Of a stretch of 42,680 nt of DNA, positions 10,819 through 42,680 are shown one piece after another (position 1 is the first letter of the stretch; each line of letters begins with the position of its first letter). The notes under the pieces were generated by a model. It was not told where the DNA came from and did not search any database. It saw nothing but the letters and a program-made list of their open reading frames with translations. The position numbers and the translations under genes were made by a program. This DNA comes from a virus: positions 1 to 42,680 of IMG/VR virus record IMGVR_UViG_3300042924_006012, one strand, 5' to 3'.

Positions 10819-11131
10819 AATAATAAAAATGATTTTCTACTGCTCCCTTGTAGTCCTGTAATGAAGGTAGTAATGGAAATGGTATAATCAATACCGCACC
10901 ATCATATATGGTATTTTCTAACCCCCCATATTGAGGATTAGCCTGAAGTATTAACCACCCAAAATATGGTGAGTCATAATAATCCTGAGATACTTTATCC
11001 AATCGACTTCTGCCCACTTTATAAATAAATGCCTTATCCGTAGGTTTTTGAGGTAACTGCACGTAAGGTACAACGGTTTGTTCACCGTTAATTAGAAATT
11101 CACTATACCTATTCCAATATTGAAATGCCAT
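10808..11131 (-). CDS. LysM-like baseplate wedge protein (gp53-like)
   Basis: A 107-residue protein. The central segment, from FIYKVGRSRLDKVSQDYYDS to GLENTIYDGAVLIIPFPLLP, has the LysM/tail-protein-X pattern: a beta strand, a helix ending 'SPYFGWLILQANP', and a closing strand after a Gly-containing turn. T4 gp53 is a baseplate wedge protein with a LysM-type fold, and similar small proteins sit between large baseplate genes in many myoviruses. The start overlaps the stop of the 1684-residue gene by one base (TAATG) and its end overlaps the giant hub-like gene by 11 bases, so all three are coupled. A peptidoglycan-binding role is possible, but a structural one is more likely. Confidence 0.72.
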   Translation of the reverse strand: MAFQYWNRYSEFLINGEQTVVPYVQLPQKPTDKAFIYKVGRSRLDKVSQDYYDSPYFGWLILQANPQYGGLENTIYDGAVLIIPFPLLPSLQDYKGAVENHFYYYGR

Positions 11132-14100
11132 TAATTAAGTTTTACTTTTGATATGTATGCCCCTGCTGAAACTCCGTCTTCAGAGTTCCATCTATTATTA
11201 TCTGTGTTTCTATTTGTTGTATCCGCCAATGATGATATCATAGTTTTTTGTGATTTTTTAGAATTATCACTAGCATTAGTTTCTGTTGTATATGTTAACA
11301 CCCTTGTTTTTTTATCAAATGGTGTATATTTTAAATAATTTTTCAATTTATTTTTTTCAACATCATCAACAAACGCCTTTGTAATATTATTTTCATTAAC
11401 AAATAATGGTCTTGTTTGTGTAACCCAATAATTATCAAATTTAGATTCAACATCATCAAAACCACCACTTAATAAACCACTATTATTAATAATATTACCA
11501 ATCATCGCAGTTTTAAATGTTTCATATTTTTTAGTATCAACAACATCGTCAGAAACTACCATATAAACTCTTCTAAAAATATTATCTTCAAATTGAGTAT
11601 TTTTACTAAATGGTTTAAACACATTTTCAACCGTTATTGTACTATCAACAGATTTACCTTTAGTATCTGTTTCAAAAACTAAAACACCTTTATACGTTAA
11701 CTTATCTGAAGGATTAATAAATTCAGTCTCGCTCCAAATAAGAGCATTAAATTCTTGAATACCATCGTATATTTTTCTAATGTCGTTATCAAGTTCCATT
11801 AGCGTATTAGATGCCCCTGTAGATGTTGTATGAACATCAGATGTCCCACTAGTAACATATACTTTAACCGGACCTGATTTTGCTTGATATCCATCAGTAC
11901 CAGTTGTATAACTTGTAGAACCATTAAAAATCATTATATTAGCTCTTCCAATTGTTTGAATATATGTTTGTTCTGCAGTTGTAATATCTTGAGTTATTTT
12001 TGTAATTGCGTTTTGAAATGAAGCCCTTTTGTTCTTAACTAAATTCTTATAATTTTCTTTTAATTGACGAATCACTTTTGGTGAAAAATTACATACAGTT
12101 GATGACATGAATTTAATAAAACCTTCATCACCACTTTGAATGTTTGATTCTAACTCACCAAAAATAGTGTCAAATCTTTTTTCAACATTACTTGGTTTCC
12201 CAAATAAAACTGATTTGGTTGGACTAACTCCAAAACTACCTTGTGTGTAAGAACGTTCTAACATCCATTGTTGTCTAACCGCATTATTATATTGATTAAC
12301 ACTTTCTTTTGTTTTGTTAACAACCGTTTGGAAATATGTTTGAGTTTCATTGACAAACTTAACCATAAAGTCAGAATAACTAAGAGTTCCTGTTTCAGTA
12401 TTTCCTGATATAACATTTGTTAACGTAACACCAATTGTACTATTATTGTTTTGACCATTCTCAACCGCGGCTTGATTAATTGCCGGTGCCTGAGGAGGAG
12501 ATGCCATCGCTAAAAATTCTTTATCTAAAACTTTTAAGAAATCTTCCTGTGCTGTAACATCCGCTCTATCATCCCAAATTTCAGTATTAGCATAATAATT
12601 AAATGTTAACGCATTTTGTAATTTATCAATAGATTCTTTTAATCCACTACCACCAACAAATTTAAATGATAAAGTTACGTTTGCAATCATTGGTTGAATA
12701 CCAATACCTTCAGGGTTAATATCTAATGATTCATATGCAAGACTTAATGATTCAGGTATAATTTTTGTATTATAAAAATCCCCAATACGTAATACTAATA
12801 CCGGAGGTGCACCAAATGATGTATTCGTTGCATTATTGTATTGTAATTGTTGTTTACCTGCAATGTCTTTAATCGTTGGAATTGTATCTCCCGGTCTCAT
12901 ACATTGTTGTAAAAATGTAAGACGAGAGTTTAATCCTTCAGGTGTTGTTGAATGGAATGCCGGTTGAAAGAATTTCAACTTATCTCTAAGGTTATCATAA
13001 ACCATAGGTGTCTCAGCTTTGATGGTCTCAAAGTAATCACATTCAGATAATAAAGCTCTTAAAACACGTTTAGTAATATTATCCCTTGGTTTATATTCTT
13101 GTGACACAACTTCTTCTGTTACTGTTTTTAATACTTTATTTTCCTCAACAATTGTCGTGTATTGTGCCGGAGGTGTAGTCGTTGGTTGTTTGATTGTTGG
13201 TAAAATTGTTTTAACATAACCCCGTCTACAAGCCATCGCGTTTGTTGTCGTAATATCATTAGCACCAACTTGAGTATCCCCTCCAACAGCATTACTATCA
13301 TTATCAGAACAATTTACATTTGTACCAATTTTATAAGTTTTAGTTACTGCATCAAATTGTAAAACTTGAGCATTTTCACCGTATACAGTTGTTGCTTTAA
13401 GTAATAATTTTTGTTTTGATAAAAATGGTTTTAACACATCACTTTCTTCAAAAAATTTGATAATAGAGGCAATTCTTCTTTTAGCCAACTCAACATTATA
13501 TGATTGAGTCGCAGGTGCAGAACAACTAGCGTCGATAGTAACTGTTATAGTACCATCACTATCTTTATATTGTGTTAATTGTTTTGCTAAATCATTAACA
13601 AATTCTTTCGCCAAATTATAGTTTGGAATAACTACCGAATCAAAAAACACGTTAGTTTGTTGAGCGTTTGGTCTAGTATTGTAATATTGCCTATTAGTAG
13701 CACTAGTATATCTTGTAAACTCTGTTGTATAATTTGGTATCGCCTCATTTTTTTTAGGAAAATCATTTCCAAAATAAAACCCTAATTGTTCGTATTTTTT
13801 AAAATCAACGTTAGTGTTTCCTCCACCACCTTCTTGGGATACGTTAACATCCGCACCTGTTGGTGAATTAACACCAGTCTGAACAGTTTTTTTAATATAC
13901 TCAGTTTGTTCTTTAGTCGTTTCTTTTGATGAAATTGCTTCTTGTAAGAGATACAAATCATTTGGATTAACCGTGTAGTATTTTTTTGCTAATTCATATA
14001 AATCATATTTTCTACAACCGGCAAAGAATGATTCTAAAATACTATCAACTCTAACTTTATTAGTTTCATTACTTAATATTTTATTAACAACAACATTTAA

Positions 14101-16185
14101 CGCAGATGGATGGTCAACAACTATCTTCCACGTTAAACTACCTGAACGAGATGTACTTTTATAAGTGTAGATAGGTTCCGGTCTACCAAGGAATTCACTT
14201 GGTTGCCAATTCGCTTGAGTTTGTTCCGTAAAAGTTAATCCATAAGGCGCAAACCACATAACTCTACCACCATTAGGTCCTCTCTCACATATCGCTAAAT
14301 CCGCAACTGAAAATCCCGGAGTACTTGAAGTTCTCCAAGCTAAGTTCTCCAATGAAAACATATATTTTTTGGCATATCCATTATTCATACCACCAATAAG
14401 GTTAGTTGAATCTTGTCCTCCTTCTTGTTTGTTTGGCGCAATGTTTAAATTATAGGTATTATCAAATACTGAATCTGAAAATCTTCGACCCGATGTTGTA
14501 ATACCATCTACTTTTTGTAAATCATTGTATTGTAAGTATGGAACATCTTTTGCGAAAATACGACAATACTCTGTTCCAACCTCTTGACCTATAGCACCAA
14601 CATATCGATATACTCTTGAACCTTTAGTTATTTCTTTATATCCATCGTGAAAAACTTTACTAACTTGGTCTATCGCATTACCTACGTGTTGTAATCTTCG
14701 ACCTCCTTGAGGTTGACTATTAATTATTCTCTGAGTGTCATCTAAAATAGAACCTCCTTTAAAAGTCCTGTTTGTTGATTCAGTTGTGTTATATGATGAA
14801 GGTTTAAAGTCTTCATCCTCATCTGTAACAACCCCACCTAAACCAACTTTTTTTCCGGCATTATCTTTATATTTTGGAGAAACCCAAGTAAAACCACCTT
14901 CAATACCCCCACCATTTGAATAAGTAGGACCATTAGCTCCTAACCTAACTTCTTGACTTGGTCCTTCATAAAGTTGAGCCAACTCTTGAGGTCCGTATAC
15001 CGGTGATTGTTGTTCTTTTCCAAATTGGTCAACAGGTAAATCACCACCTGGAGAAAACACTCGAGATGGTTCAGAAGACACAGAACCAATATAGTAATTA
15101 CTATTATCAGATAAAGTTCCGGTTAATGCACCTGCAACTCTATCAATTATACCTCTAACTAAATTTGGTTTATATTTGTTGTAATCAATATTTTTAAATA
15201 AACGAGACCTTTGACCTGCACCTGTGTTGTTGTAAAATATTTGAGAACCTGTTTGTGTTCCACCTAATAACTGATTAAAGAAATTACCAACACCTGTACC
15301 AGCAATCGCATTGGTTACTTGTTGAATGGTTGTTGGTTGTCCCGGATTAATTGTTGGGTCAAAATAAGAACCAGGTATTAAAGAAACAGGTAAAATACTT
15401 CCTCCTAACCTTAAGGCAAAATCCGCAGCTGCAGTTAATGGATTTGCAGGAACTGTAATTTGCCAATTTGGTTCTAATAAAGGAACTTGACCTGAAATAA
15501 TACCTAATAAATCGGTTCCACTATTAACATTTAAGATGTTGGCTTGTCCTATCGTCTCTAATCTTATTCGAGCAGCAATTCTTTCTTGGAATTCATTTCT
15601 AAGTGTTTGAGCACCTAAACGAGCAATATATGAATCCTGACTTAAATTACCATTGCTACCGGTTGGGTTTGTTGATAATAAAATTGATAGTGGAGAATAT
15701 GATGATGGGACAATTGGTCCCGGATATGGTTGTCCATTACTTTGTCTATCTTGGTCGGGTCTAACTGTTTCTAAACTTGAGAATGATTCTGCTGAGTCAA
15801 AAACATTTAACCCATCTGCATAAGCATTTAATGGTCTCCATAATCTTACCGCATCATAACCCTCGTCAACAATATGTGCATCTTGTTGTCCCGGACCGTA
15901 TTCACCTTGATTTGAAATTGTGTTAGTTAAACCATTTGGGTCAGGAACTTGTTGATACCCTCCCTCATTACCATATCTATTTAAAGGATATAATTGGTTT
16001 GCTAACGATGGGTTATCAATAAGTTGGTCAGGACTATCAATTACAGATAAGTCCGATGAAATATATTCATACGGAACTTGAACAGAAGGTCTGCTTGGAG
16101 ATTTAGCGTAAGGTACTAAATTTCTTGTTATTAATTTCTTTCTGAAACCATCCGAATTTATGTAATCTAATGGACTATTTGACAT
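11131..16185 (-). CDS. Large baseplate/tail structural protein with OmpA-like domain
   Basis: A 1684-residue protein in the baseplate block. The first ~400 residues are rich in Gly, Asn, Pro and Gln. Residues about 640-710 contain VMWFAPYGLTFTEQTQANW and later RSGSLTWKIVVDHPS, a beta-rich module that I associate with baseplate/tail proteins of large phages. Residues about 845-945 look like an OmpA C-terminal-type domain: FFDSVVIPNYNLAKEFVNDL, a strand ITVTIDASCS, then YNVELAKRRIASIIKFF, matching the NxxLAxxRAxxV helix that binds diaminopimelate in peptidoglycan. The C-terminal half has helical stretches and ends in beta structure. It follows the tape measure and overlaps the LysM-like gene by one base. 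A TATTTATA element lies 15 bases before the start. The structural role is likely; the OmpA-like domain is a motif-level call. Confidence 0.75.
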   Translation of the reverse strand: MSNSPLDYINSDGFRKKLITRNLVPYAKSPSRPSVQVPYEYISSDLSVIDSPDQLIDNPSLANQLYPLNRYGNEGGYQQVPDPNGLTNTISNQGEYGPGQQDAHIVDEGYDAVRLWRPLNAYADGLNVFDSAESFSSLETVRPDQDRQSNGQPYPGPIVPSSYSPLSILLSTNPTGSNGNLSQDSYIARLGAQTLRNEFQERIAARIRLETIGQANILNVNSGTDLLGIISGQVPLLEPNWQITVPANPLTAAADFALRLGGSILPVSLIPGSYFDPTINPGQPTTIQQVTNAIAGTGVGNFFNQLLGGTQTGSQIFYNNTGAGQRSRLFKNIDYNKYKPNLVRGIIDRVAGALTGTLSDNSNYYIGSVSSEPSRVFSPGGDLPVDQFGKEQQSPVYGPQELAQLYEGPSQEVRLGANGPTYSNGGGIEGGFTWVSPKYKDNAGKKVGLGGVVTDEDEDFKPSSYNTTESTNRTFKGGSILDDTQRIINSQPQGGRRLQHVGNAIDQVSKVFHDGYKEITKGSRVYRYVGAIGQEVGTEYCRIFAKDVPYLQYNDLQKVDGITTSGRRFSDSVFDNTYNLNIAPNKQEGGQDSTNLIGGMNNGYAKKYMFSLENLAWRTSSTPGFSVADLAICERGPNGGRVMWFAPYGLTFTEQTQANWQPSEFLGRPEPIYTYKSTSRSGSLTWKIVVDHPSALNVVVNKILSNETNKVRVDSILESFFAGCRKYDLYELAKKYYTVNPNDLYLLQEAISSKETTKEQTEYIKKTVQTGVNSPTGADVNVSQEGGGGNTNVDFKKYEQLGFYFGNDFPKKNEAIPNYTTEFTRYTSATNRQYYNTRPNAQQTNVFFDSVVIPNYNLAKEFVNDLAKQLTQYKDSDGTITVTIDASCSAPATQSYNVELAKRRIASIIKFFEESDVLKPFLSKQKLLLKATTVYGENAQVLQFDAVTKTYKIGTNVNCSDNDSNAVGGDTQVGANDITTTNAMACRRGYVKTILPTIKQPTTTPPAQYTTIVEENKVLKTVTEEVVSQEYKPRDNITKRVLRALLSECDYFETIKAETPMVYDNLRDKLKFFQPAFHSTTPEGLNSRLTFLQQCMRPGDTIPTIKDIAGKQQLQYNNATNTSFGAPPVLVLRIGDFYNTKIIPESLSLAYESLDINPEGIGIQPMIANVTLSFKFVGGSGLKESIDKLQNALTFNYYANTEIWDDRADVTAQEDFLKVLDKEFLAMASPPQAPAINQAAVENGQNNNSTIGVTLTNVISGNTETGTLSYSDFMVKFVNETQTYFQTVVNKTKESVNQYNNAVRQQWMLERSYTQGSFGVSPTKSVLFGKPSNVEKRFDTIFGELESNIQSGDEGFIKFMSSTVCNFSPKVIRQLKENYKNLVKNKRASFQNAITKITQDITTAEQTYIQTIGRANIMIFNGSTSYTTGTDGYQAKSGPVKVYVTSGTSDVHTTSTGASNTLMELDNDIRKIYDGIQEFNALIWSETEFINPSDKLTYKGVLVFETDTKGKSVDSTITVENVFKPFSKNTQFEDNIFRRVYMVVSDDVVDTKKYETFKTAMIGNIINNSGLLSGGFDDVESKFDNYWVTQTRPLFVNENNITKAFVDDVEKNKLKNYLKYTPFDKKTRVLTYTTETNASDNSKKSQKTMISSLADTTNRNTDNNRWNSEDGVSAGAYISKVKLN

Positions 16186-29163: not shown

Positions 29164-30696
29164 ATGAAAAAAATACAACAAAAAATTAAAGAGTTAGAAA
29201 CAGTAATCCTTGGAAATCACGTATTAAAGGAACAAAGATTGTTAATAACAGAAATGAAGAAAATTGGAATAGAAAAACTTCCTTATTCTTACTCAGCCTT
29301 GAAACAATTCATCGACCCCGAAACGATGGAATTTCACTACAACAAACATTACAAGGGATACGTGGATAAATTGAATGATGCTCTTTCAAAGAAAAAATAC
29401 GGGGATTTAGAGTTAATTCAAATAATTAAAACAATTGATAGATTTGATAAGACAATTCGAAATAATGCCGGTGGCGCTTTTAACCACGCATTGTTTTGGA
29501 ATATGTTATCTCCAAAACCAACAAAACTTAAAGGAGAACTTTATAACAAAATTATTAAACAATATGGTAGTTTTCCAACATTCAAAAAAGAATTTGAAAA
29601 AATAGCTAAAGAACGTTTTGGTTCAGGATGGGTATGGTTAATAGTTACCTCAAGAAATACTTTAAAAATAATGTCGACCCCTAATCAAGATAACCCATTA
29701 ATGAATGTTATTGAAGGTGGTGGGTTTCCAATCTTAGGATTAGATTTATGGGAACACGCATATTATCTTAAGTATAGAAACAAACGAGATGAATATATTG
29801 CAAATTTTTGGAAAGTTGTGAATTGGGATTTTGTTTCTAAATTATATGACATGAAAGTTGAAACAAAACTTCTTGAGACAAATAAAATGAAAGAGATACT
29901 AAGTGAAGGAAAATCAGAAATGTGTTCATCATCTGAAAATGAATTTTATAGAACTTTATTCAATACTAATCAAGATGTTAAATGGATTTACATGAATGGT
30001 ATCAATAAAATTATGAGAGAAGTTTTTTCTGAAAATTTTGTTGAAAATCCCGGTAATAACCAAATGTCAGGTGTTTATGAGTTAGAAGGACCGGGTCGGT
30101 CAGTAATCAATAAATTAAATACAAATTACACATCATTCTGTATTTTATTAAATGATGTAAATCAAGTTATTAAAAAATTAACAAAAAAACCACCAATTGA
30201 TTTTAGAAATAAGAATACAGAAGAACAAAAGAAAGAGGCTTCAAGATTTATTTCGGCAATTAATCATTATAAATTTCAAATATTTAATCGAGAAAGTTCA
30301 ACATTTCAAAACCTATTAAGGGTTTTAATTGAAAAGAATGCCGCAGGTTCAAAACGTGAAGAAATAACTGCATCAATATTGAGAAGATATTTTGGTAAAG
30401 GGGTTAAGGTTGAAATTGTTGGAGAACTTGGAAGTAAAAAAGACGCAATTAGCGGTGTTGATATTGAAATAACCAAAGATGGGGTCACTAAAACAGCACA
30501 AGTAAAACCTTTTAGAGAGAAAAAAATAACCGATAATGGTATTTTGTTGGAAGGAACCGCAAGTGTTAAAATTTATAAAACAGATTTAATGATATTTCAA
30601 AAAGGAAAAAATGTTTTAGTTTTCAATGAAAAACCAATAATTGTTAATGGTAATTTTTTATTCCCATTAGATTCGTTATTGTATGACATACAATAA
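29164..30696 (+). CDS. Superoxide dismutase fused to a PD-(D/E)xK nuclease-like domain
   Basis: A 510-residue fusion. Residues about 38-228 are a complete Fe/Mn superoxide dismutase, converting superoxide to peroxide and oxygen: metal ligands H58 (EFHYNKHYKGYV), H108 (FNHALFWN), D194 and H198 (LGLDLWEHAYYLKYRN). Q175 in NQDNPLM and the GG before FNH fit the Mn or cambialistic type. Residues 1-37 are a helical extension, and 229-255 a linker. The C-terminal ~255 residues are helical (NYTSFCILLNDVNQVIKKL; HYKFQIFNRESSTFQNLLRV), then a beta core with GVDIEI (D433) and TAQVKPF (Q446-x-K448). That is the D...QxK pattern of Mrr-type PD-(D/E)xK nucleases. A TATTTATA element lies 21 bases upstream. 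The SOD call is very strong; the nuclease call rests on short motifs. Confidence 0.85.
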   Translation: MKKIQQKIKELETVILGNHVLKEQRLLITEMKKIGIEKLPYSYSALKQFIDPETMEFHYNKHYKGYVDKLNDALSKKKYGDLELIQIIKTIDRFDKTIRNNAGGAFNHALFWNMLSPKPTKLKGELYNKIIKQYGSFPTFKKEFEKIAKERFGSGWVWLIVTSRNTLKIMSTPNQDNPLMNVIEGGGFPILGLDLWEHAYYLKYRNKRDEYIANFWKVVNWDFVSKLYDMKVETKLLETNKMKEILSEGKSEMCSSSENEFYRTLFNTNQDVKWIYMNGINKIMREVFSENFVENPGNNQMSGVYELEGPGRSVINKLNTNYTSFCILLNDVNQVIKKLTKKPPIDFRNKNTEEQKKEASRFISAINHYKFQIFNRESSTFQNLLRVLIEKNAAGSKREEITASILRRYFGKGVKVEIVGELGSKKDAISGVDIEITKDGVTKTAQVKPFREKKITDNGILLEGTASVKIYKTDLMIFQKGKNVLVFNEKPIIVNGNFLFPLDSLLYDIQ

Positions 30697-35038: not shown

Positions 35039-35416
35039 TTAACAACAAGCAGTTTCTGAAATAAAACTTGGTTGGACATTAATATAAAGTTCTTCTCTAA
35101 TTGGAAGAATTAAATTACCTTCGTCATTCTTAATTAAGAATTGACCCTCATATCTACCCGGAGTGTTAGTATCTCTTGATGTAAATTTAAAGTAAATGTA
35201 GTATTCAGGAGATGCTCCGTCGGGTAAAATTAAATTTACAATTTCGGCGGGAGCGGATACTATTTTAGGAATACCCGTCTCCACGTCAATCATTGTAAAA
35301 AATATTGTAGATACCTCTAAATCTTGCATAAGTTGTTGGTATCCGGCTCTACCGTCCTTAACAACTTGCATTTTTAATACAGGTAATGTTGCGTTTTGTT
35401 TGATATAAAATTCCAT
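35039..35416 (-). CDS. Small beta-rich protein, possible virion/fibre-associated
   Basis: A 125-residue protein, predicted all-beta: MEFYIKQNATLPVLKMQVVK, SPEYYIYFKFTSRDTNTPGR and NLILPIREELYINVQPSFIS. The pattern of a short N-terminal strand, an 'STIFFTMIDVETG' strand and a 'YEGQFLI' strand suggests an immunoglobulin-like fold, as in adaptor domains of baseplates or fibres. It ends in two cysteines (SETACC). No family is assigned. It is the last gene after the glycosyltransferase cluster, starting 16 bases after it, with TATTTATT just upstream. It could be a structural protein modified by those enzymes, but that is inference. Confidence 0.6.
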   Translation of the reverse strand: MEFYIKQNATLPVLKMQVVKDGRAGYQQLMQDLEVSTIFFTMIDVETGIPKIVSAPAEIVNLILPDGASPEYYIYFKFTSRDTNTPGRYEGQFLIKNDEGNLILPIREELYINVQPSFISETACC

Positions 35417-35419
35417 AAC

Positions 35420-35427
35420 AATAAATA
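35420..35427 (-). promoter_or_regulatory. TATTTATT variant near the 125-residue gene
   Basis: The coding strand reads ATATATTTATT 3 bases before the start. The 17-base sequence 35421-35437 is identical to 3110-3126, which precedes another small minus-strand gene. Confidence 0.32.
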
Positions 35428-35432
35428 TATCG

Positions 35433-37106
35433 TTATGACTCTTTACGTAACTCTCCTTCGTAATGTTCGAATCTATCGTGTTCAGTTGGGGATAAAAGTA
35501 ATAAACCCGATGACAATTCTCCCTTTTTAGTTAATTGATACATATGACTCATCCATGTTTGTTCAAATGGATGTGCCCATGTTGTATCCAAAAACATTTT
35601 TTTATTTCCCGGTCTACTAACAATTTGAGGCCAGTTACAATAATAAACTTCACCGGAACCGTATGGTAAACCTTTGTGAGATAAAATTGATGAAAATTTA
35701 GTTTTTGGAGCGTTAGGGTCTAACCCAAGATGAGGTAATGTTGATTTTTCAGGCCAAAACTCTTCCCTAACTGATTGAGGTACATTATACCAAGACCATT
35801 GGGTTCCATTATCACCATAAAATTCAGAATAATTAAGTTTTAAAAAATCAAAATTTTCTTTTTTAATTATCTCTAATGATTTGGTATACAAATTTGGGAC
35901 ATATCTATTAAACCCATTTCGACAAACAGAACCTTCATTAGGGAAGAAAAACATATCGTCTTCAAAAAATAAATAATAATCTAAATCTGTCGTTTCAAAA
36001 TGTTCGGCAATCCATTGTCTACCACCACAAATTCCAAGATTTTCTTTTTTTATGTGTTCAAATCCGTGTTCTTGACATAATCTTAAGTATTCGTCAGTCG
36101 TTGATAAGTCAGTTGAATTATCCAACAAATATTTCTTTGTCTTTAATAAATAATCATTGTCATAAGTTTCAAATGATTTAATTAAAGTTTTAAATTGATT
36201 TGGACTATTAAATGTTAAAACATATAACCCCACTTTATTTGTGTCTAAATTATTTTCAACACTAACTTTAGATTCATTTTTTGGTATTAACTTATCATTT
36301 TTTAAATCTTCAAAAAACTTTCCAACCAATCCACTGTATTCAATTTCAAAGTAATTAATTAAATCAGAATGTTTATAAGCCATTATACTAAAAATTGATT
36401 CTTCAGTTCCCATATAACCTTCATCAAGGGTTGATTTTAACAATCCATAATAAATCCCATTAATATCAGTAATAGTATGTTTAGGACCTCCAAAAAACCC
36501 ACCACGAGATACTTTAGTTACTTTAGAACCGGCAATTGAATTTAATTTATTATACTCAAATCCGTGTATTTCATTCTCAGCTCCATATGGAAAACTAATA
36601 AATGAAAACTTTGAAATATATTTTGATAATTTATCAAGTACTTTATCATGAGTAAAATATCCAGGATGGACCGTGTTAGTTAAACCTCCGTCAATCCAAA
36701 ACAGATATTCTGAGTCAAACTTATCAAATATTTTAGCATCATGTAATAAAAATACTTTTGACATAACAAGAGGATTATAATTTTCTAATCTTGCTTGTGT
36801 TGATTGTTCTAACCACCCAACTTGACTGTACCAATTTGGATTAGTTCGAATGTTTTGAATTAATGGATAAAATTCAGAATTTGTAAACCAATCTAACGGC
36901 CTTTCAATAAACTGAGTATTTGATTCATTTCTTTTTCTAAAAACAAATTCTCTAAGACTTTCATCTCCAAAAATTATCATATTCTCCTGAACATCTAAAA
37001 GTTGTTCAAATTTATCTAAATAATGTTGGTATGACCTTGACCACCCTTCGGTTAATTCTCCTCTACCAATATCCCATATTCCTGTTACTAATGTTATATT
37101 ACTCAT
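35433..37106 (-). CDS. Two-domain glycosyltransferase: HtrL/YibB-like plus GT-A domain
   Basis: A 557-residue protein. The N-terminal ~275 residues start ITLVTGIWDIGRGELTEGW, have LFWIDGGLTN (D139) and RGGFFGGPKH, a layout like the HtrL/YibB (WlaTC-type) family found in surface polysaccharide clusters. Residues about 290-557 are a separate GT-A glycosyltransferase: VGLYVLTFNSPNQFKTLIKS, LGICGGRQWIAEHF and the metal-binding YYLFFEDDMFFFP (EDD at 382-384). It would add a sugar from a nucleotide-sugar donor to an unknown acceptor, and the N-terminal domain may add a second. No signal peptide or membrane segment is seen, so it acts in the cytoplasm. Its start overlaps the previous gene by 4 bases. 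The fusion of the two modules is uncommon to my knowledge. Confidence 0.78.
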   Translation of the reverse strand: MSNITLVTGIWDIGRGELTEGWSRSYQHYLDKFEQLLDVQENMIIFGDESLREFVFRKRNESNTQFIERPLDWFTNSEFYPLIQNIRTNPNWYSQVGWLEQSTQARLENYNPLVMSKVFLLHDAKIFDKFDSEYLFWIDGGLTNTVHPGYFTHDKVLDKLSKYISKFSFISFPYGAENEIHGFEYNKLNSIAGSKVTKVSRGGFFGGPKHTITDINGIYYGLLKSTLDEGYMGTEESIFSIMAYKHSDLINYFEIEYSGLVGKFFEDLKNDKLIPKNESKVSVENNLDTNKVGLYVLTFNSPNQFKTLIKSFETYDNDYLLKTKKYLLDNSTDLSTTDEYLRLCQEHGFEHIKKENLGICGGRQWIAEHFETTDLDYYLFFEDDMFFFPNEGSVCRNGFNRYVPNLYTKSLEIIKKENFDFLKLNYSEFYGDNGTQWSWYNVPQSVREEFWPEKSTLPHLGLDPNAPKTKFSSILSHKGLPYGSGEVYYCNWPQIVSRPGNKKMFLDTTWAHPFEQTWMSHMYQLTKKGELSSGLLLLSPTEHDRFEHYEGELRKES

Positions 37107-37681
37107 ATAGTATCTCTTATTTTATAAATTATTTTATCTACAAATTCATAATCCATCATTTTAGATAGTTCCTCATAAAATAAACCATCCCCAAAAACAT
37201 CTTCAGTAAATTTTGGTAATTTTTTTGTATTAGGTATTACTCCCATACATTTACCAACATTACCAAGTATAACTTTTTTTATGGTCCAATTAATTGTTTC
37301 TCCCCATTTATGTTTAAAAATGTATAATTTTTCTTCTGTTACAAATTGTCTAATAGTTTCAAACGCATCATCCACATAATAATCGTCATCGTCTGCAAAC
37401 ATAATAAAATCCCCGTCAAGGGAATTAATATGTTTGTTTAATAAAGGATGTCCAAACTTGCCTAACTTTTCACCTTCATTTTTAATATGATTTAAATTAA
37501 AATTAAAAGTGTGATTAGATAATATGTTTTCAACAATTTCATGATTAGTATCTGAAATTATGGTAAAATAATCGTTTGGGGTTAATTGATTTTTAAAACT
37601 ATCGATTAACCTTGATAACGATTCTCGTCCTATTGTTGTACAAACAATATTAAAAGAATAGTTAGACATCATATTTTTCAT
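37103..37681 (-). CDS. GT-A glycosyltransferase (family 2-like)
   Basis: A 192-residue protein. NIVCTTIGRESLSRLIDSFK starts the nucleotide-binding fold, GKFGHPLLNKHINSLDGDFI leads to MFADDDDYYVDDA, the Asp-rich DxD-type metal site at residues 97-100, and FGDGLFYEELSKMM may be the later acidic motif. It is short for family 2 but complete as a single-domain GT-A enzyme. It acts in the cytoplasm on an unknown acceptor. ATG codons at residues 4 and 5 give a slightly shorter alternative start; the longer one overlaps the previous gene by 20 bases. The next gene overlaps its end by 4 bases. Confidence 0.78.
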   Translation of the reverse strand: MKNMMSNYSFNIVCTTIGRESLSRLIDSFKNQLTPNDYFTIISDTNHEIVENILSNHTFNFNLNHIKNEGEKLGKFGHPLLNKHINSLDGDFIMFADDDDYYVDDAFETIRQFVTEEKLYIFKHKWGETINWTIKKVILGNVGKCMGVIPNTKKLPKFTEDVFGDGLFYEELSKMMDYEFVDKIIYKIRDTI

Positions 37682-38507
37682 CTATTTTATATTTATCCGT
37701 ATCTAACAAATCCATAAGGTCTAATACACCTTTTTGTAAATCTAACCAATCACCAAAATTAAAAAATTTAACATCATTGGTATGAGTTAAAATTGATAAC
37801 ACTTCTTGTTCACTAATTAATTTATTTGTTTCGGTATAATACTTTTCAAAAATTGATAAATAATTTGACAAAACTTTTTTAATTGACTCACCGTCTCCAC
37901 CAAATAACCCTCCGGGAACTAATTTAAAATCAGTATTAAACATACCAACCAAAACATCTTTAAGCTCATAATTAACTTGAATTGACTCACCTCTTAAACA
38001 GATAAAACCATTATCCGATATTTTTTCATTTATTTTATTTAAAAATAATTCTGAATGGGCAAAAACATTGATGTAGTCTCTCCATCTATCATGACAACTA
38101 GTTCCGAATAAACCTGAATCAATCCATACAATATTTTTATCATCTTCACATTCGTCAAGTAAAAATTGTAGTTTATTAAAAATAACTTCAATATAATTTT
38201 TAACACAATATACTCTTTCATAAATTTCACCATCTGAATAATTTGAAAGTCTAATTGGGTTTATATTATTAAGATAATAGTCAGAATCTAATTCTCTAAA
38301 TTTTATAGTTATGTTAGGTTTATTAAATTCTTCACCCAAACGATACTTATCATAAGTGTATTTATTTGTATAAATAACATATTCAAAACCTTCAAAAATG
38401 ATGTTTCGTAATGTTTGTGTTAATAATGGATATGATTTATACACCATGCCTCCACGAGAATCCTCGTAATTTAATTCATATACTGATGTTACAATTTTTA
38501 ATACCAT
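37662..38507 (-). CDS. HtrL/YibB-like glycosyltransferase-type protein
   Basis: A 281-residue protein. It has KIVTSVYELNYEDSRGG at the start, EYVIYTNKYTYDK, NIVWIDSGLFGTS with D130, and LVPGGLFGGDGESIKKVL. The 'WIDSGLFG' and 'GGLFGGD' features match the N-terminal module of the 557-residue protein (WIDGGL, GGFFGGP), so the two share a family, probably the HtrL/YibB type associated with sugar transfer. No signal peptide is seen. The start overlaps the preceding 235-residue gene by 10 bases and the end overlaps the following gene by 20 bases, so the cluster is translated as one unit. The sugar and acceptor are unknown. Confidence 0.72.
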   Translation of the reverse strand: MVLKIVTSVYELNYEDSRGGMVYKSYPLLTQTLRNIIFEGFEYVIYTNKYTYDKYRLGEEFNKPNITIKFRELDSDYYLNNINPIRLSNYSDGEIYERVYCVKNYIEVIFNKLQFLLDECEDDKNIVWIDSGLFGTSCHDRWRDYINVFAHSELFLNKINEKISDNGFICLRGESIQVNYELKDVLVGMFNTDFKLVPGGLFGGDGESIKKVLSNYLSIFEKYYTETNKLISEQEVLSILTHTNDVKFFNFGDWLDLQKGVLDLMDLLDTDKYKIDEKYDV

Positions 38508-39205
38508 TTATCGTGATTGGGGATTAATAAGTTAATATGTTTATTTGAGTTATTATGTAATTCAATTCCATTATGAAATGCGGAAAAACACATTTCATCA
38601 ATATTTCCCGCAGGAATATTATGTAAATTATCTGAATTTTTAATCTCAATACATTTATCCCATGTTTTTAAAAAAGAGTAAAATTTATCTTTTTCAATAT
38701 CCAAAAATTGTATACAATCTTCCGGCATCCACATATCTTTTTTGTTATAATTAACATCGAATATTGATTCATAATGAACAAATCTTCTACCTAACATACT
38801 ATTACGTTCAATCTCATTCTCAAAAAGATATGTTACTTGACCTGAAATACTATTTGGGATAAAACAATCTAATATGTTTTTTTGATTAAATAAATTTTCA
38901 TTTGGGATAACATCTGTATCTGTTAAAATTATCTTAGTAAAACCATTATCTAAAGCAAATTTAACCGAAAATCTTTTAACTGAAAAATCAAAATCATAAT
39001 AATTTGTTTTGTATGTTGAATATTTTTCATCATATTCTTTAATATCTGACACAAACACAAAATCTTCTTTGGTTATTGATTCTGGTTTATCAGTAACAAT
39101 AAAAATTTTTGGTTTATCTTCAAATTTTTTAAATGATTCTATCATTCTATTTGTTTGGTCATAGTACCTCTCACCATAACAAAATGTTGCAATTGCGTAA
39201 CTCAT
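38498..39205 (-). CDS. GT-A glycosyltransferase with DTD motif
   Basis: A 235-residue protein. The start, MSYAIATFCYGERYYDQTNR, followed by PKIFIVTDKP and a helix with VKRFSVKFALDNGFTKIILT, leads into DTDVIPN (D96, D98), the DxD metal-binding motif of GT-A enzymes. MPEDCIQFLD, and later NIPAGNIDEMCFSAFHN, are in the place of acceptor- and catalysis-side motifs. This resembles family 8 and related enzymes that take a UDP-sugar. It is 13 bases downstream of the 421-residue gene and overlaps the next gene by 10 bases. The product and acceptor cannot be deduced. Confidence 0.72.
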   Translation of the reverse strand: MSYAIATFCYGERYYDQTNRMIESFKKFEDKPKIFIVTDKPESITKEDFVFVSDIKEYDEKYSTYKTNYYDFDFSVKRFSVKFALDNGFTKIILTDTDVIPNENLFNQKNILDCFIPNSISGQVTYLFENEIERNSMLGRRFVHYESIFDVNYNKKDMWMPEDCIQFLDIEKDKFYSFLKTWDKCIEIKNSDNLHNIPAGNIDEMCFSAFHNGIELHNNSNKHINLLIPNHDKWY

Positions 39206-39218
39206 ACTATCTAAAAAT

Positions 39219-40484
39219 TTAACTAACTATATTATGATGTAATCTACCAGTTATTCTATCACACCATCCTTTAGAAGTTGAGAATGGCCATACAACCCAA
39301 TGTGATGGTAATTCATCTGTTTGGAATTCTCTCCATACTTTACAATATTTGTCAGGGTCTCTCATAAAACTAGCAATTTCGTTTTTATCAGCATCTTTTC
39401 TAAACAAAGTCTCATCTTTATCATTATGGAATGCAACAACCCAAAATTCATAATCTTTTTCGGGTACTTGGTCATACCCAATATCAATACAATGTTTGAA
39501 CATCATACAAAAACTATCTTTCCATTCTTGTTCTGTTTTAAAGTTATATGGGTTTGGAGGGTAGTTTTTATCTAAGGTGTATTTGTCAATCGCTCTTTTT
39601 TCAAATAAAAGACCTGAATATTTTTCATAGTCAGTTAATGTTCTAACCGTACCAAATCCGTATAATCCGTCATGACCTTCTTGTTTTTCACCATCCATTC
39701 CAAATAGTTTTCTATTTGTATGATGTGAATGTCTGTTTTTCTCACCCCAAGTTTTATCGTCATCCCATTGCTTAGTTCTACCTTTACGAGTATACTCATG
39801 ATACACAACAGGAATTTGTGGGTGAAATAAATCATAACCCCACGTATATGCTCTTGCTGCAATTGAAATTTCTTCTCCATGGAAATAATATTCAGGATTG
39901 TGTTGAACCTCAATTGAGAAAGCACCTAATGTGAAACAGAAGTGAGCAGAATAGAATCTTGCGGTTACCGGTTTTTTCATTTCTCTCCATCCCGGAATTG
40001 TTTCAGGTAAAAAGAACACAGCCCCTTCAGGAATAAATCTATCAAACACCATTCTCCATGCCTCATTTACTCGGCCAGCAGGGTCATTTTCAGGGTCAAA
40101 AGAAGGAACATATCCGGTTAATAAAGGTTTCTCATGTCCGTCTTTTTGAAGACCTTTAATCATTTTAATTAAAATATCGTCCCAATCTTTAACAAATCTC
40201 ATGTGAGAATCAATTTGAAGTGTGTATGTTTCACCACCATAAAGTTGTTGAGTTAGATTTCTTGCCCAACAAACACCTTTAGAATCTTCATATGGAATAT
40301 CTAAAATTTTAAATCTTTTATCTTTTCTATAATCTTCTAACTTATCAAAACCATCATCTTCACTAAATTGCCTTGCAATTCCAAATGTAATGTTTTTAGG
40401 TCTTTTGGCATTTGCCAACATATCTTTGATTGTTGGTTCTAATTGAGGGTCTCGATACGACGCGATTTGAACAAATATTTTCAT
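39219..40484 (-). CDS. GlcNAc-transferase-type glycosyltransferase (Skp1-GlcNAc family-like)
   Basis: A 421-residue protein. The start, KIFVQIASYRDPQLEPTIKD followed by PKNITFGIARQF, is typical of the UDP-GlcNAc:polypeptide (Skp1-type) GlcNAc-transferase family (Pfam 'GlcNAc', PF11397). D92-S-H94 in YTLQIDSHMRF takes the place of the metal-binding DxD/DxH motif, and EYYFHGEEISIAARAYTWGY is the conserved GEE..AAR..T.GYD region near the active site. Skp1-family enzymes add GlcNAc to hydroxyproline or to Ser/Thr on cytoplasmic protein, so a protein acceptor is plausible. The adjacent upstream gene encodes a long Thr/Pro-rich virion-type protein. That link is inference. It is the first gene of the glycosyltransferase cluster, just after a terminator. 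Confidence 0.85.
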   Translation of the reverse strand: MKIFVQIASYRDPQLEPTIKDMLANAKRPKNITFGIARQFSEDDGFDKLEDYRKDKRFKILDIPYEDSKGVCWARNLTQQLYGGETYTLQIDSHMRFVKDWDDILIKMIKGLQKDGHEKPLLTGYVPSFDPENDPAGRVNEAWRMVFDRFIPEGAVFFLPETIPGWREMKKPVTARFYSAHFCFTLGAFSIEVQHNPEYYFHGEEISIAARAYTWGYDLFHPQIPVVYHEYTRKGRTKQWDDDKTWGEKNRHSHHTNRKLFGMDGEKQEGHDGLYGFGTVRTLTDYEKYSGLLFEKRAIDKYTLDKNYPPNPYNFKTEQEWKDSFCMMFKHCIDIGYDQVPEKDYEFWVVAFHNDKDETLFRKDADKNEIASFMRDPDKYCKVWREFQTDELPSHWVVWPFSTSKGWCDRITGRLHHNIVS

Positions 40485-40509
40485 AACGTTTACTTTTTTT
40501 TTAAAAATA

Positions 40510-40539
40510 AAAAACCCTCCACAAAAGTAGAGGGTTTTT
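40510..40539 (-). terminator. Terminator after the Thr/Pro-repeat gene
   Basis: A 10-bp perfect stem (40510-40519 with 40530-40539), a 10-base loop, then a T-rich run on the minus strand. It separates the Thr/Pro-repeat gene from the glycosyltransferase cluster. Confidence 0.82.
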
Positions 40540-40559
40540 AAAATATATTTTATTTTATT

Positions 40560-42452
40560 TTATGGACATCCTGTAAGATTTTGGTCGGTAATTAAACCTG
40601 AACCACCTGATACTAAGAACCAAGCCGTTCCATTAGAGTAATAACCATCCGGTGCTTCATCTGTTAGTGGAATTCCCGGTGTTTCATATAAAGTATCACC
40701 TACTGTTGGTCCAGAACCTTGAGCCACCGTTCCGTAAACAGTTATTGTTGAACCTGGGAAGTTAGAACAAGCTGTTGAAGCAAGTGTTGCATCATATCCT
40801 AAACTATATGTATAGTATGCGAAAGTTGGTGTTGGTGACGATGTTTGAGTTGGAGTATTAGTTGGGGTTGAAGTAGTAGTTGGTGTAGGGGTTAATGTTT
40901 GACATACTGAACTCACCCCTGTTTGAGTTCCATTAATTAATTGAACAACAATTTGAGAGTTATTAAAATAACCCGTTAAGTTTCCGACACTTGGTCCAAC
41001 AATTGTATCATAGAAAACCGGATTATCCGCAAAGGCAGATTCCTCACCATAAATCACTATTGTTGAATAATATTGTCCACACGCCTCGTCAGATGTTGTT
41101 CCTGAATAAACAGTAAATGCAAATCTATTACCTGTTGGTGTTGGAGTTTGAGTTGGAGTTCCTGTCTGAGTTGGTGTTTGAGTTGGTGTTCCTGTTTGAG
41201 TTGGAGTCTGAGTTTGAGTTGGTGTTTGAGTTGGTGTTGGTGTTCCTGTTTGAGTCTGAGTTTGAGTCTGAGTTTGAGTTGGTGTCTGAGTTTGAGTTGC
41301 AGTTGGAGTAGGCGTTAAGGTTTGACATGCTGTAAATGCTCCCGTTTCACCACCATTATTTAATTCAACAATTATTTGAGAATAATTAAAATATCCTGTT
41401 AAGCTTCCTACACTTGGTCCAACAATTGTATCATAGAAAATAGTATTTTCATTAAATACTGATTCTTCACCATAAATTGTTATTGAAGGATTATATTGTC
41501 CACACGCAAATTCAATTGACGAACCCGAATAAACAATAAATGCAAATCTATTACCTGTTGGTGTTGGAGTTTGAGTTGGTGTTCCTGTTTGTGTTTGAGT
41601 TGGTGTATTAGTTGGAGTTCCCGTGTTAGTTGGCGTATTTGTTGGTGTATTAGTTGGAGTTTCCGTATTAGTTGGTGTATTAGTCGGTGTTTGAGTAGGA
41701 GTCGATGTTTGAGTAGGAGTTTGTGTTGGTGTGATTAAACCAACACACCCATTAGGGTCATATGTTGTAATCTCACCTAATCCACCTGAAACAATGAACC
41801 AAGCAACTCCATTAGAATAATAACCATCAGTAACCGGATTAGTTAATGGGTTACCAAATGTTTGATATAAAAATTCACCCACACTTGGACCCGGTCCATC
41901 AACTACTTGACCATAAACTGTTTGAGGGTTTAATTCAAAATTATTACATGCTTCACTATCATCAGCACCAAAACCTAAACTATAGGTATAATAAGCAAAT
42001 GTTGATGTTGGCGTACTTGTGTTAGTTGGGGTTGGTGTACTAGTTTTCGTATTAGTAGGAGTTTGAGTTGGTGTACCTGTTTGTGTTTGAGTCGGAGTAT
42101 TAGTTGGTGTTAAAGTGTTTGTTGGAGTCGCAGTATTAGTTGCAGTATTAGTTGGAGTTGCAGTATTAGTTGGAGTCTGAGTTTGAGTTGGTGTTTGAGT
42201 TGGTGTTGGTGTTGGAGTTGGTGTTTGTGTTTGACTTGCACTAACTAAAGGAAACACTCCTAAATTAACTAAAACTACGGAATTACTAAATGATGGAGCA
42301 ATTGAATATGTATTATCAATCAACCAAATATTTTTTGTTTGATTTGGATTCAATTCAACCTGATATTCCCATAGAGAGTCATCACATCTTCTATAGTTAA
42401 AGTTCACTAAAGTAGAACCAGTGTTTGTTAAAGTATATTTACTACATGCCAT
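40560..42452 (-). CDS. Thr/Pro-repeat modular virion-type surface protein
   Basis: A 630-residue protein. Residues 1-72 are an N-terminal domain ([20 protein letters not shown]...). Then four linkers made of Thr/Pro/Gln/Asn repeats such as [15 protein letters not shown] alternate with four small beta domains of two kinds. Type A is at about 152-238 and 543-630, with [10 protein letters not shown] at the start and DGYYSNGxAWFxVSGG at the end. Type B is at about 301-378 and 442-518, starting NRFAFxVYSG and containing [10 protein letters not shown] and GYFNxSQI. Each domain has two cysteines, perhaps forming a disulfide. There is no signal peptide, so it is more likely part of the phage particle than of the cell surface. 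The Thr-rich linkers are natural places for sugar attachment and five glycosyltransferase genes follow directly. A near-copy of the 3' end lies upstream at 42524-42680. Confidence 0.75.
40827..42236 (-). repeat. Thr-Pro-Thr-Gln coding repeat blocks
   Basis: Four blocks of short tandem repeats at about 42000-42236, 41553-41738, 41130-41318 and 40827-40898, where the coding strand repeats 6-base units for Thr-Pro, Thr-Gln and Thr-Asn (ACTCCAACTCAAACT-like). Unit order differs between blocks, which suggests copy-number change by slippage or recombination. Open frames in the other phases here, such as a Ser/Asn-rich one at 41128-41328, are only by-products. Confidence 0.85.
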
Positions 42453-42468
42453 GTTATTTCTGTTTAAA

Positions 42469-42476
42469 TATAAATA
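42469..42476 (-). promoter_or_regulatory. TATTTATA candidate promoter element
   Basis: The coding strand reads AGTATTTATA 16 bases before the Thr/Pro-repeat gene start, again matching the family of sites. Confidence 0.4.
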
Positions 42477-42523
42477 CTACAATAGTATTGATTTTATGTT
42501 TTTAGGTTAAAATTTATTTTATT

Positions 42524-42680
42524 TTATGGACATCCTGTAATATTTTGACTGGTAATTAAACCTGAGCCACCTGATATTAAGAACCAAGCCGTTCCATTAG
42601 AGTAATAACCATCCGGTGCTTCATCTGTTAGTGGAATTCCCGGTGTTTCATATAAAGTATCACCTACTGTTGGTCCAGAA
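42524..42680 (-). CDS. 3' end of a second Thr/Pro-repeat-type gene (tandem duplicate, cut by window)
   Basis: The coding sequence enters from the right edge and ends at the stop codon at 42524-42526. It encodes the last ~51 residues of a type A domain: [34 protein letters not shown] and ITGCP. Over about 157 bases it differs from the 3' end of the neighbouring gene (40560-40716) at about six positions only, and the similarity continues past the stop codon into the ATTTTATTTTAT stretch. This is a recent tandem duplication or gene conversion. The start and linkers are outside the window. A short gap of 71 bases separates it from the next start; no terminator as clear as that at 40510-40539 is seen. 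Confidence 0.8.
   Translation of the reverse strand, partial: SGPTVGDTLYETPGIPLTDEAPDGYYSNGTAWFLISGGSGLITSQNITGCP

What the first reader, a model, noticed from the sequence alone, without database searches (positions are those of the whole stretch)
35039..42680. Glycosyltransferase cluster beside Thr/Pro-repeat surface proteins
Seen: five glycosyltransferase-type genes, overlapping or almost so, directly downstream of a modular protein with four Thr/Pro/Gln/Asn linkers; the first enzyme belongs to the family that adds GlcNAc to proteins. Known: Thr-rich Pro-containing linkers are common O-glycan sites. Inference: the phage decorates its own fibre or surface protein with a short glycan, which may mask it or alter host binding. 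A less likely reading is modification of host surface sugars or DNA.
Basis: inference. Interest (0 to 1): 0.7.

Follow-up and report, generated by a model that had tools for sequence, protein, structure and literature searches.

The report
Mucin-like sugar coating of phage fibres
A lineage of very large freshwater phages appears to coat threonine/proline-rich stalks on its own particle with a mucin-like sugar chain, using a fixed starter enzyme next to a swappable set of sugar-adding genes, so that near-identical phages may wear different sugar coats.

Summary
Genes 35433-40484 (-) are five predicted glycosyltransferases beside a 630-aa protein with four Thr/Pro/Gln/Asn linkers. The window is a fragment of a T4-like jumbo-phage lineage.

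GT1 is GT60/PF11397, the family of protist enzymes that start Thr-linked mucin glycans. It keeps the DxH motif, and its model is closest to mucin-type polypeptide GalNAc-transferases (Z 18-21).

In 80 relatives the order is T/P protein(s) - GT1 - variable cassette - GT5. The cassette is swapped exactly between the GT1 stop and the GT5 start, even among phages with 96-99% identical DNA polymerase. Cassettes carry fucosyltransferases, GT25, a sugar transaminase and O-methyltransferases.

T/P proteins lie among tail-fibre genes. GT60-bearing jumbo phages encode 7-15 of them; three GT60-less comparators encode none. The link recurs in several other GT60 groups. XacN1, with 42-45% identical GT1 and GT5 and 15 T/P proteins, has at least two published virion glycoproteins.

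Best reading: cytoplasmic mucin-type O-glycosylation of Thr in virion fibre linkers, with a serotype-like exchangeable outer glycan. No glycan has been shown on a T/P protein. One correction: a conserved terminator separates the T/P gene from GT1, so they are not one simple operon.

The parts
40560..42452 (-). T/P-linker modular protein, 630 aa: proposed O-glycan acceptor on the virion
   Evidence: ORF; four linkers; N-terminal domain and module families shared with relatives
42258..42452 (-). conserved N-terminal domain of the T/P protein (proposed docking domain)
   Evidence: 24-row alignment, 46-97% identity to the window
41979..42257 (-). Thr/Pro linker 1
   Evidence: composition scan
41748..41978 (-). 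module A1
   Evidence: 47-row alignment and confident model, pLDDT 89
41541..41747 (-). Thr/Pro linker 2
   Evidence: composition scan
41337..41540 (-). module B1
   Evidence: module family shared among T/P proteins
41118..41336 (-). Thr/Pro linker 3
   Evidence: composition scan
40923..41117 (-). module B2
   Evidence: module family shared among T/P proteins
40806..40922 (-). Thr/Pro linker 4
   Evidence: composition scan
40563..40805 (-). module A2
   Evidence: same family as A1
42498..42680 (-). 3' end of a second, tandem T/P paralogue cut by the window edge
   Evidence: 94% identical over 183 nt to the 3' end of the first
40510..40539 (-). intrinsic terminator between the T/P gene and GT1
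   Evidence: pattern scan; present in 35 of 36 relatives
39219..40484 (-). GT1: GT60/PF11397 polypeptide GlcNAc-transferase-like enzyme, proposed initiator
   Evidence: E 4.9e-66; DxH invariant; pp-GalNAcT-like model
38498..39205 (-). GT2: predicted GT-A enzyme of the exchangeable cassette
   Evidence: TDTD motif and cassette family c8; no Pfam hit
37662..38507 (-). GT3: predicted glycosyltransferase of the exchangeable cassette
   Evidence: WIDSG motif; c0-profile match E 2e-10; no Pfam hit
37103..37681 (-). GT4: GT2-family enzyme of the exchangeable cassette
   Evidence: PF00535 E 4.5e-6
37107..39218 (.). exchangeable cassette between the GT1 stop and the GT5 start
   Evidence: DNA homology to close relatives stops at 39219 and resumes near 37106; 45 clusters in relatives
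35433..37106 (-). GT5: HtrL_YibB domain plus GT-like C-terminal half, conserved downstream enzyme
   Evidence: PF09612 E 4.5e-20; conserved in relatives and in XacN1 at 42%
35039..35416 (-). 125-aa conserved ORF, not a glycosyltransferase, function unknown; flanks the cluster
   Evidence: conserved beside GT5 in most relatives; no family hit

Best explanation
The phage makes a mucin-type O-glycan on its own virion. The T/P proteins are modular fibre or surface proteins with a fixed docking domain, Thr-alternating T/P linkers and interchangeable modules. In the host cytoplasm GT1 (GT60) adds a first sugar, probably alpha-GlcNAc, to Thr in the linkers. GT2-GT4 extend it, and GT5 acts at a conserved step. 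Exchange of the gene block between GT1 and GT5 changes the outer glycan, like an O-antigen serotype switch, altering adhesion, shielding or host binding. Shown by computation: gene order, enzyme families, DxH motif, polypeptide-GalNAcT-like fold model, cassette exchange, and recurrent GT60-T/P association. Inferred: the glycosylation itself, the sugar and linkage, the order of the steps, virion location of the T/P proteins, and the biological effect.
For: GT1 PF11397 E 4.9e-66. DxH kept, the motif reported for GT27 and GT60. Model closest to pp-GalNAc-Ts, Z 18-21 over about 270 residues, above the next group at 17. A characterised GT60 enzyme puts alpha-GlcNAc on Thr of mucins. Fixed order and 77 of 80 loci with T/P ORFs against 2 of 93 controls; the same order when anchored on DNA polymerase. 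T/P genes among tail-fibre genes. GT60+ XacN1, RAS14, G001 and G003 have 15, 10, 7 and 10 T/P proteins; GT60- RaK2, Atu_ph07 and SCTP-2 have 0. 14 of 50 T/P contigs against 0 of 39 controls carry PF11397 (p 0.0002). A more distant GT60 group: 49 of 71 loci have T/P ORFs. Bacterial GT60 genes beside T/P-tailed exported proteins. XacN1 virions have at least two glycoproteins. No GT has a membrane-like segment. Cassette genes include GT10, GT11, GT25, a LegC-like transaminase and a CmcI-type methyltransferase.
Against: No glycan has been shown on any T/P protein, and which XacN1 proteins are glycosylated is not stated in the text held. 36 of 50 T/P contigs lack GT60, though many are fragments. 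Only 6 of 14 XacN1-like loci have T/P ORFs within 10 kb. A terminator splits the T/P gene from GT1, so co-expression is not shown. Contig length differs between the T/P and control sets. Lineages are few, so the GT60+/- genome contrast rests on about two independent comparisons.
Confidence: 0.74

Rival explanations
1. The GTs glycosylate a different virion protein (for example capsid or tail tube); the T/P linkers are only flexible spacers, and the adjacency reflects a shared virion-surface locus.
For: Mycobacteriophages glycosylate capsid and tail-tube C-termini (summarised). T/P linkers also occur on contigs without GT60. Terminator between the T/P gene and GT1.
Against: T/P proteins and GT60 co-occur in several diverged groups with different linker styles, and some bacterial GT60 genes lie beside T/P-tailed proteins. 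Known GT60 acceptors include Thr/Pro-rich mucin.
Confidence: 0.11
2. The enzymes modify the host envelope (LPS or capsule) to block superinfection or change host surface sugars.
For: Cassettes hold LPS-type families such as GT25 and YibB-like proteins; temperate phages are known to alter host serotype (noted).
Against: No membrane segment in any of the five GTs, and no lipid-linked initiating enzyme, flippase or polymerase noticed among the cassette proteins read. The conserved first enzyme is of a polypeptide-acting family.
Confidence: 0.07
3. The enzymes glycosylate phage DNA against restriction.
For: Weak match of the GT5 C-terminal half to a beta-glucosyl-HMC-alpha-glucosyltransferase family, E 0.002; the cluster lies near DNA polymerase.
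Against: Thymidylate-synthase homologues in relatives keep the dUMP-type Asn rather than the dCMP-hydroxymethylase type (the reading of that residue rests on my knowledge of the family). No T4 AGT or BGT family hit, although no control rang in those searches. DNA hypermodification does not explain the T/P association.
Confidence: 0.04
4. GT1 acts on hydroxyproline in the linkers, as Skp1 Gnt1 does, after a prolyl hydroxylase.
For: Gnt1 is a GT60 member specific for hydroxyproline. 2OG-Fe(II) oxygenase genes occur in three relatives.
Against: PF13640 is not found in XacN1, RAS14 or the 309-kb relative G001, which have both GT1 and T/P proteins. Thr is the dominant, regularly spaced residue while the partner varies between Pro, Gln, Asn and Val.
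Confidence: 0.04

Closest known systems
GT60 mucin-type initiation in Trypanosoma cruzi (pp-alpha-GlcNAcT / TcOGNT; PMC3769586, PMC9472816)
   Same: Same CAZy family by sequence and DxH motif; Thr-rich, Pro-containing acceptor tracts; a conserved first step followed by strain-variable extension
   Different: Golgi enzyme acting on GPI-anchored cell-surface mucins; here a soluble phage enzyme with fibre-like proteins as proposed acceptors
Xanthomonas phage XacN1 virion glycoproteins (PMC5852040)
   Same: Carries relatives of GT1 (ORF334, 45%) and GT5 (ORF330, 42%) with other genes between; 15 T/P proteins; at least two virion glycoproteins detected, which the authors tentatively attribute to the phage GTs
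   Different: The text read does not name T/P linkers as acceptors, the GT60 link or cassette exchange; one intervening gene is a carbamoyltransferase
Mycobacteriophage virion glycosylation (Freeman 2023, known here only through PMC12619734)
   Same: Glycans on virion proteins, in phages that encode glycosyltransferases
   Different: Acceptors are C-termini of capsid and tail-tube proteins; no T/P linkers described there
Moraphages (PMC12619734)
   Same: Freshwater T4-like jumbo phages of similar size with four GT families among core genes; probably the same or a sister lineage (untested)
   Different: That paper leaves the GT target open; the passages read do not describe this locus
PBCV-1 major capsid protein glycosylation (as cited in PMC5852040)
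   Same: Virus-encoded glycosylation machinery for a virion protein
   Different: Algal virus, different enzymes and acceptor

Membership tests
GT60 / PF11397 (polypeptide alpha-GlcNAc-transferase) | sequence match to the family model | tested here: met
   E 4.9e-66, 224 bits against a cut-off of 21
GT60 / PF11397 (polypeptide alpha-GlcNAc-transferase) | DxH in place of DxD | tested here: met
   D91-S92-H93 invariant in 16 sequences; motif reported for GT27/GT60
GT60 / PF11397 (polypeptide alpha-GlcNAc-transferase) | GT-A fold close to GT27 polypeptide GalNAc-transferases | tested here: met
   pLDDT 85; pp-GalNAc-Ts fill the top 29 entries at Z 18.1-21.3; predicted model only
GT60 / PF11397 (polypeptide alpha-GlcNAc-transferase) | transfers GlcNAc from UDP-GlcNAc to a polypeptide | not testable with these tools
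   needs an enzyme assay
Mucin-type O-glycoprotein (acceptor) | dense Thr/Pro-rich tracts outside folded domains | tested here: met
   four linkers, 42% Thr, 17% Pro
Mucin-type O-glycoprotein (acceptor) | O-glycan attached to Thr/Ser | not testable with these tools
   needs mass spectrometry
Virion fibre / surface protein | encoded among tail-fibre or structural genes | tested here: met
   neighbouring genes in relatives match phrog_366, phrog_17517 and phrog_8510; Laminin_G_3 in one T/P protein
Virion fibre / surface protein | present in purified virions | not testable with these tools
   no virion proteome for this lineage; the XacN1 figure is not held
T4-type DNA glucosylation | T4 AGT or BGT family enzyme | tested here: inconclusive
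   no PF11440 or PF09198 match in six relatives, but no control rang either
T4-type DNA glucosylation | dCMP hydroxymethylase | tested here: inconclusive
   thymidylate-synthase homologues of relatives look dUMP-type; window phage incomplete
Moraphage lineage | shared marker-gene clade (MCP, TerL, PolB) | not tested
   no moraphage sequence was at hand to compare with; habitat, size and core GTs are similar; glutamine synthetase, found in nine of them, is not found in six relatives here

The most novel reading that the evidence does not exclude
Jumbo phages carry a serotype-like, exchangeable mucin-type O-glycosylation system: a GT60 initiator acting on Thr-alternating T/P linkers of several fibre proteins, followed by a cassette replaced wholesale at exact gene borders between close relatives, giving antigenic-type glycan variation of the virion surface.
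Probability: 0.6. Interest if true: 0.85.

Novelty: new variant of a known kind. Interest (0 to 1): 0.72.

Why it matters
Phage virion glycosylation is known in few cases. This locus names a likely acceptor (regular Thr/Pro linkers), a likely initiator (GT60) and a variable extension block, and gives a simple genomic signature that recurs in many viral contigs and near some bacterial exported proteins. It would extend mucin-type O-glycosylation initiated by GT60, characterised in protists, to phages. It also suggests that phage surfaces diversify by glycan switching much as bacterial O-antigens do, which bears on adsorption, immune recognition and phage-phage competition.

Tried and rejected
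First guess that GT1 might be OGT (PF13844): no hit. DNA-glucosylation markers sought in relatives: no AGT/BGT match, thymidylate synthase of dUMP type. Hydroxyproline route: P4H-like oxygenase not found in XacN1, RAS14 and G001 or in the window. Fold of module A: confident model but nothing convincing in the PDB; weak matches to mostly uncharacterised phage proteins in BFVD. A combined alignment of N-domain and modules was mis-registered and dropped (A1). No solved structure resembles GT1 or GT5 by sequence. tblastn of the T/P protein and of its N-domain against isolate phages found nothing. A simple rule 'T/P implies GT60' is rejected: 36 of 50 T/P contigs lack it. A one-operon reading is rejected because of the conserved terminator. 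A gene used to link to moraphages (glutamine synthetase) was absent, so that link stays a suggestion.

Full report
WHAT IS THERE. The window is a 42,680-base virus record with T4-like structural genes and a family B DNA polymerase. On the - strand, 35433-40484, lie five predicted glycosyltransferase genes, three neighbouring pairs of them overlapping. Upstream lies a 630-aa protein with a conserved N-terminal domain, four T/P linkers and four modules of two types. The window edge cuts a second T/P paralogue, 94% identical over 183 nt at its 3' end. The linkers are strikingly regular: 91% of Thr are followed by Thr two residues on, 2% by an adjacent Thr. All four Thr codons are used, so the pattern is not a simple DNA repeat.

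THE FIRST ENZYME. GT1 matches PF11397 at E 4.9e-66 and phrog_24687. Across 16 diverse phage homologues D91-S92-H93 is invariant, the DxH form reported for GT27 and GT60 (PMC7185993). Its predicted model (pLDDT 85) is closest to mucin-type polypeptide GalNAc-transferases: 29 entries at Z 18.1-21.3, about 270 residues at 3.5-4.1 A, against 17.0 for the next. Characterised GT60 enzymes are the T. cruzi enzyme that puts alpha-GlcNAc on Thr of mucins, an activity assayed with KPPTTTTTTTTKPP (PMC3769586; PMC9472816), and Skp1 Gnt1, which needs hydroxyproline (PMC6939170). That PF11397 is the Pfam counterpart of GT60 is my own knowledge.

CONSERVED ENDS, VARIABLE MIDDLE. 510 viral stretches encode GT1 relatives; the best 80 were read. 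The order is T/P protein(s), GT1, cassette, GT5, 125-aa ORF, DNA polymerase. Between GT1 and GT5 there are 45 protein clusters in about 20 arrangements; the commonest is a two-gene cassette. The window's own three-gene cassette recurs whole only in L047 and in part in L007-L009 and L067. Phages with 96-99% identical polymerase have different cassettes, whereas L047, with 79% identical polymerase, shares the window's. At DNA level homology ends at the GT1 stop (39219) and resumes at or within about 50 nt of the GT5 start (37106). Cassette proteins include GT25, GT10 fucosyltransferase, GT11, an RXYLT1-like protein, a LegC-like sugar transaminase, a CmcI-like methyltransferase and a sugar nucleotidyltransferase.

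INDEPENDENT ANCHOR. Starting from the polymerase instead of GT1, nearly every locus that reaches far enough upstream holds GT1, and most of those reaching well past GT1 hold T/P segments. In the few without GT1 (for example L383, L384, L387) other cassette genes fill the reach, so the cassette may simply be too long. Co-inheritance within the lineage is therefore close to complete.

T/P PROTEINS LOOK LIKE VIRION FIBRES. Up to five T/P ORFs lie in tandem upstream of GT1, with several N-terminal types. Modules are shared between proteins with different N-termini. Neighbours match tail-fibre and virion-structural families, and one T/P protein ends in a concanavalin-like domain. Virion location is inferred, not shown.

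ASSOCIATION BEYOND THE LINEAGE. GT60-bearing XacN1, RAS14, G001 and G003 have 15, 10, 7 and 10 T/P proteins; RaK2, Atu_ph07 (390 of 490 kb read) and SCTP-2 (390 of 440 kb read) have none, and no PF11397. Of 50 viral contigs of at least 20 kb chosen only for a TPTQTPT codon pattern, 14 carry PF11397, against 0 of 39 chosen with the reversed pattern (Fisher p 0.0002; contig lengths differ). Within the short loci themselves the figures are 9 of 120 against 0 of 93. A more distant GT60 group, about 40% identical, has T/P ORFs in 49 of 71 loci, with a PTPTPT style of linker. In bacteria 19 of 79 GT60 loci have a T/P ORF; some of these are wrong-frame artefacts or possible phage contigs, but L625 has a Tat-like signal and a T/P tail ending two bases before GT60.

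EXPERIMENTAL ANCHOR. XacN1, which carries relatives of GT1 (45%) and GT5 (42%), has at least two virion glycoproteins, and its authors suggested its own GTs, ORF334 among them (PMC5852040). The text does not say which proteins they are.

MECHANISM. Cytoplasmic, stepwise O-glycosylation fits best. No GT has a membrane-like segment, and no lipid-linked initiator, flippase or polymerase was noticed among the cassette proteins read. GT1 starts on Thr, cassette enzymes extend, and GT5 acts at a conserved step. A terminator conserved in 35 of 36 loci separates the T/P gene from GT1, so enzymes and acceptor are probably transcribed separately.

LIMITS. Sugar identity, linkage, occupancy and effect are unknown. 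Thr against hydroxyproline is argued from composition and from the absence of a PF13640 oxygenase in XacN1, RAS14 and G001, not shown. GT2 and GT3 are called GTs from motifs and a profile match. The moraphage assignment rests on habitat, size and core GTs only.

Noticed in passing
40510-40539 (-): Intrinsic terminator between the T/P gene and GT1, present in 35 of 36 relatives.
   Followed up: yes
42498-42680 (-): Truncated second T/P paralogue, 94% identical at its 3' end to the first: recent tandem duplication or gene conversion.
   Followed up: partly
L031:911-2125 (-): A further glycosyltransferase (phrog_7162) on the opposite strand upstream of the T/P genes, conserved in several relatives.
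   Followed up: no
L625:4460-5998, L606:5221-5871, L599:4507-5649: GT60 genes on bacterial contigs lie beside T/P-tailed proteins, some with Tat-like signals or a sorting-type C-terminus: possible bacterial counterpart of the system.
   Followed up: partly
L081:14792-17089 (-): XacN1 has a carbamoyltransferase within its GT1-GT5 block, suggesting a carbamoylated sugar.
   Followed up: no
29164-30696 (+): 510-aa ORF with no PHROGs match, between a helicase and a head-tail adaptor-like gene.
   Followed up: no
3127-10818 (-) and 11131-16185 (-): Two very long ORFs (2563 and 1684 aa) without Pfam or PHROGs matches, in a baseplate/tail region.
   Followed up: no
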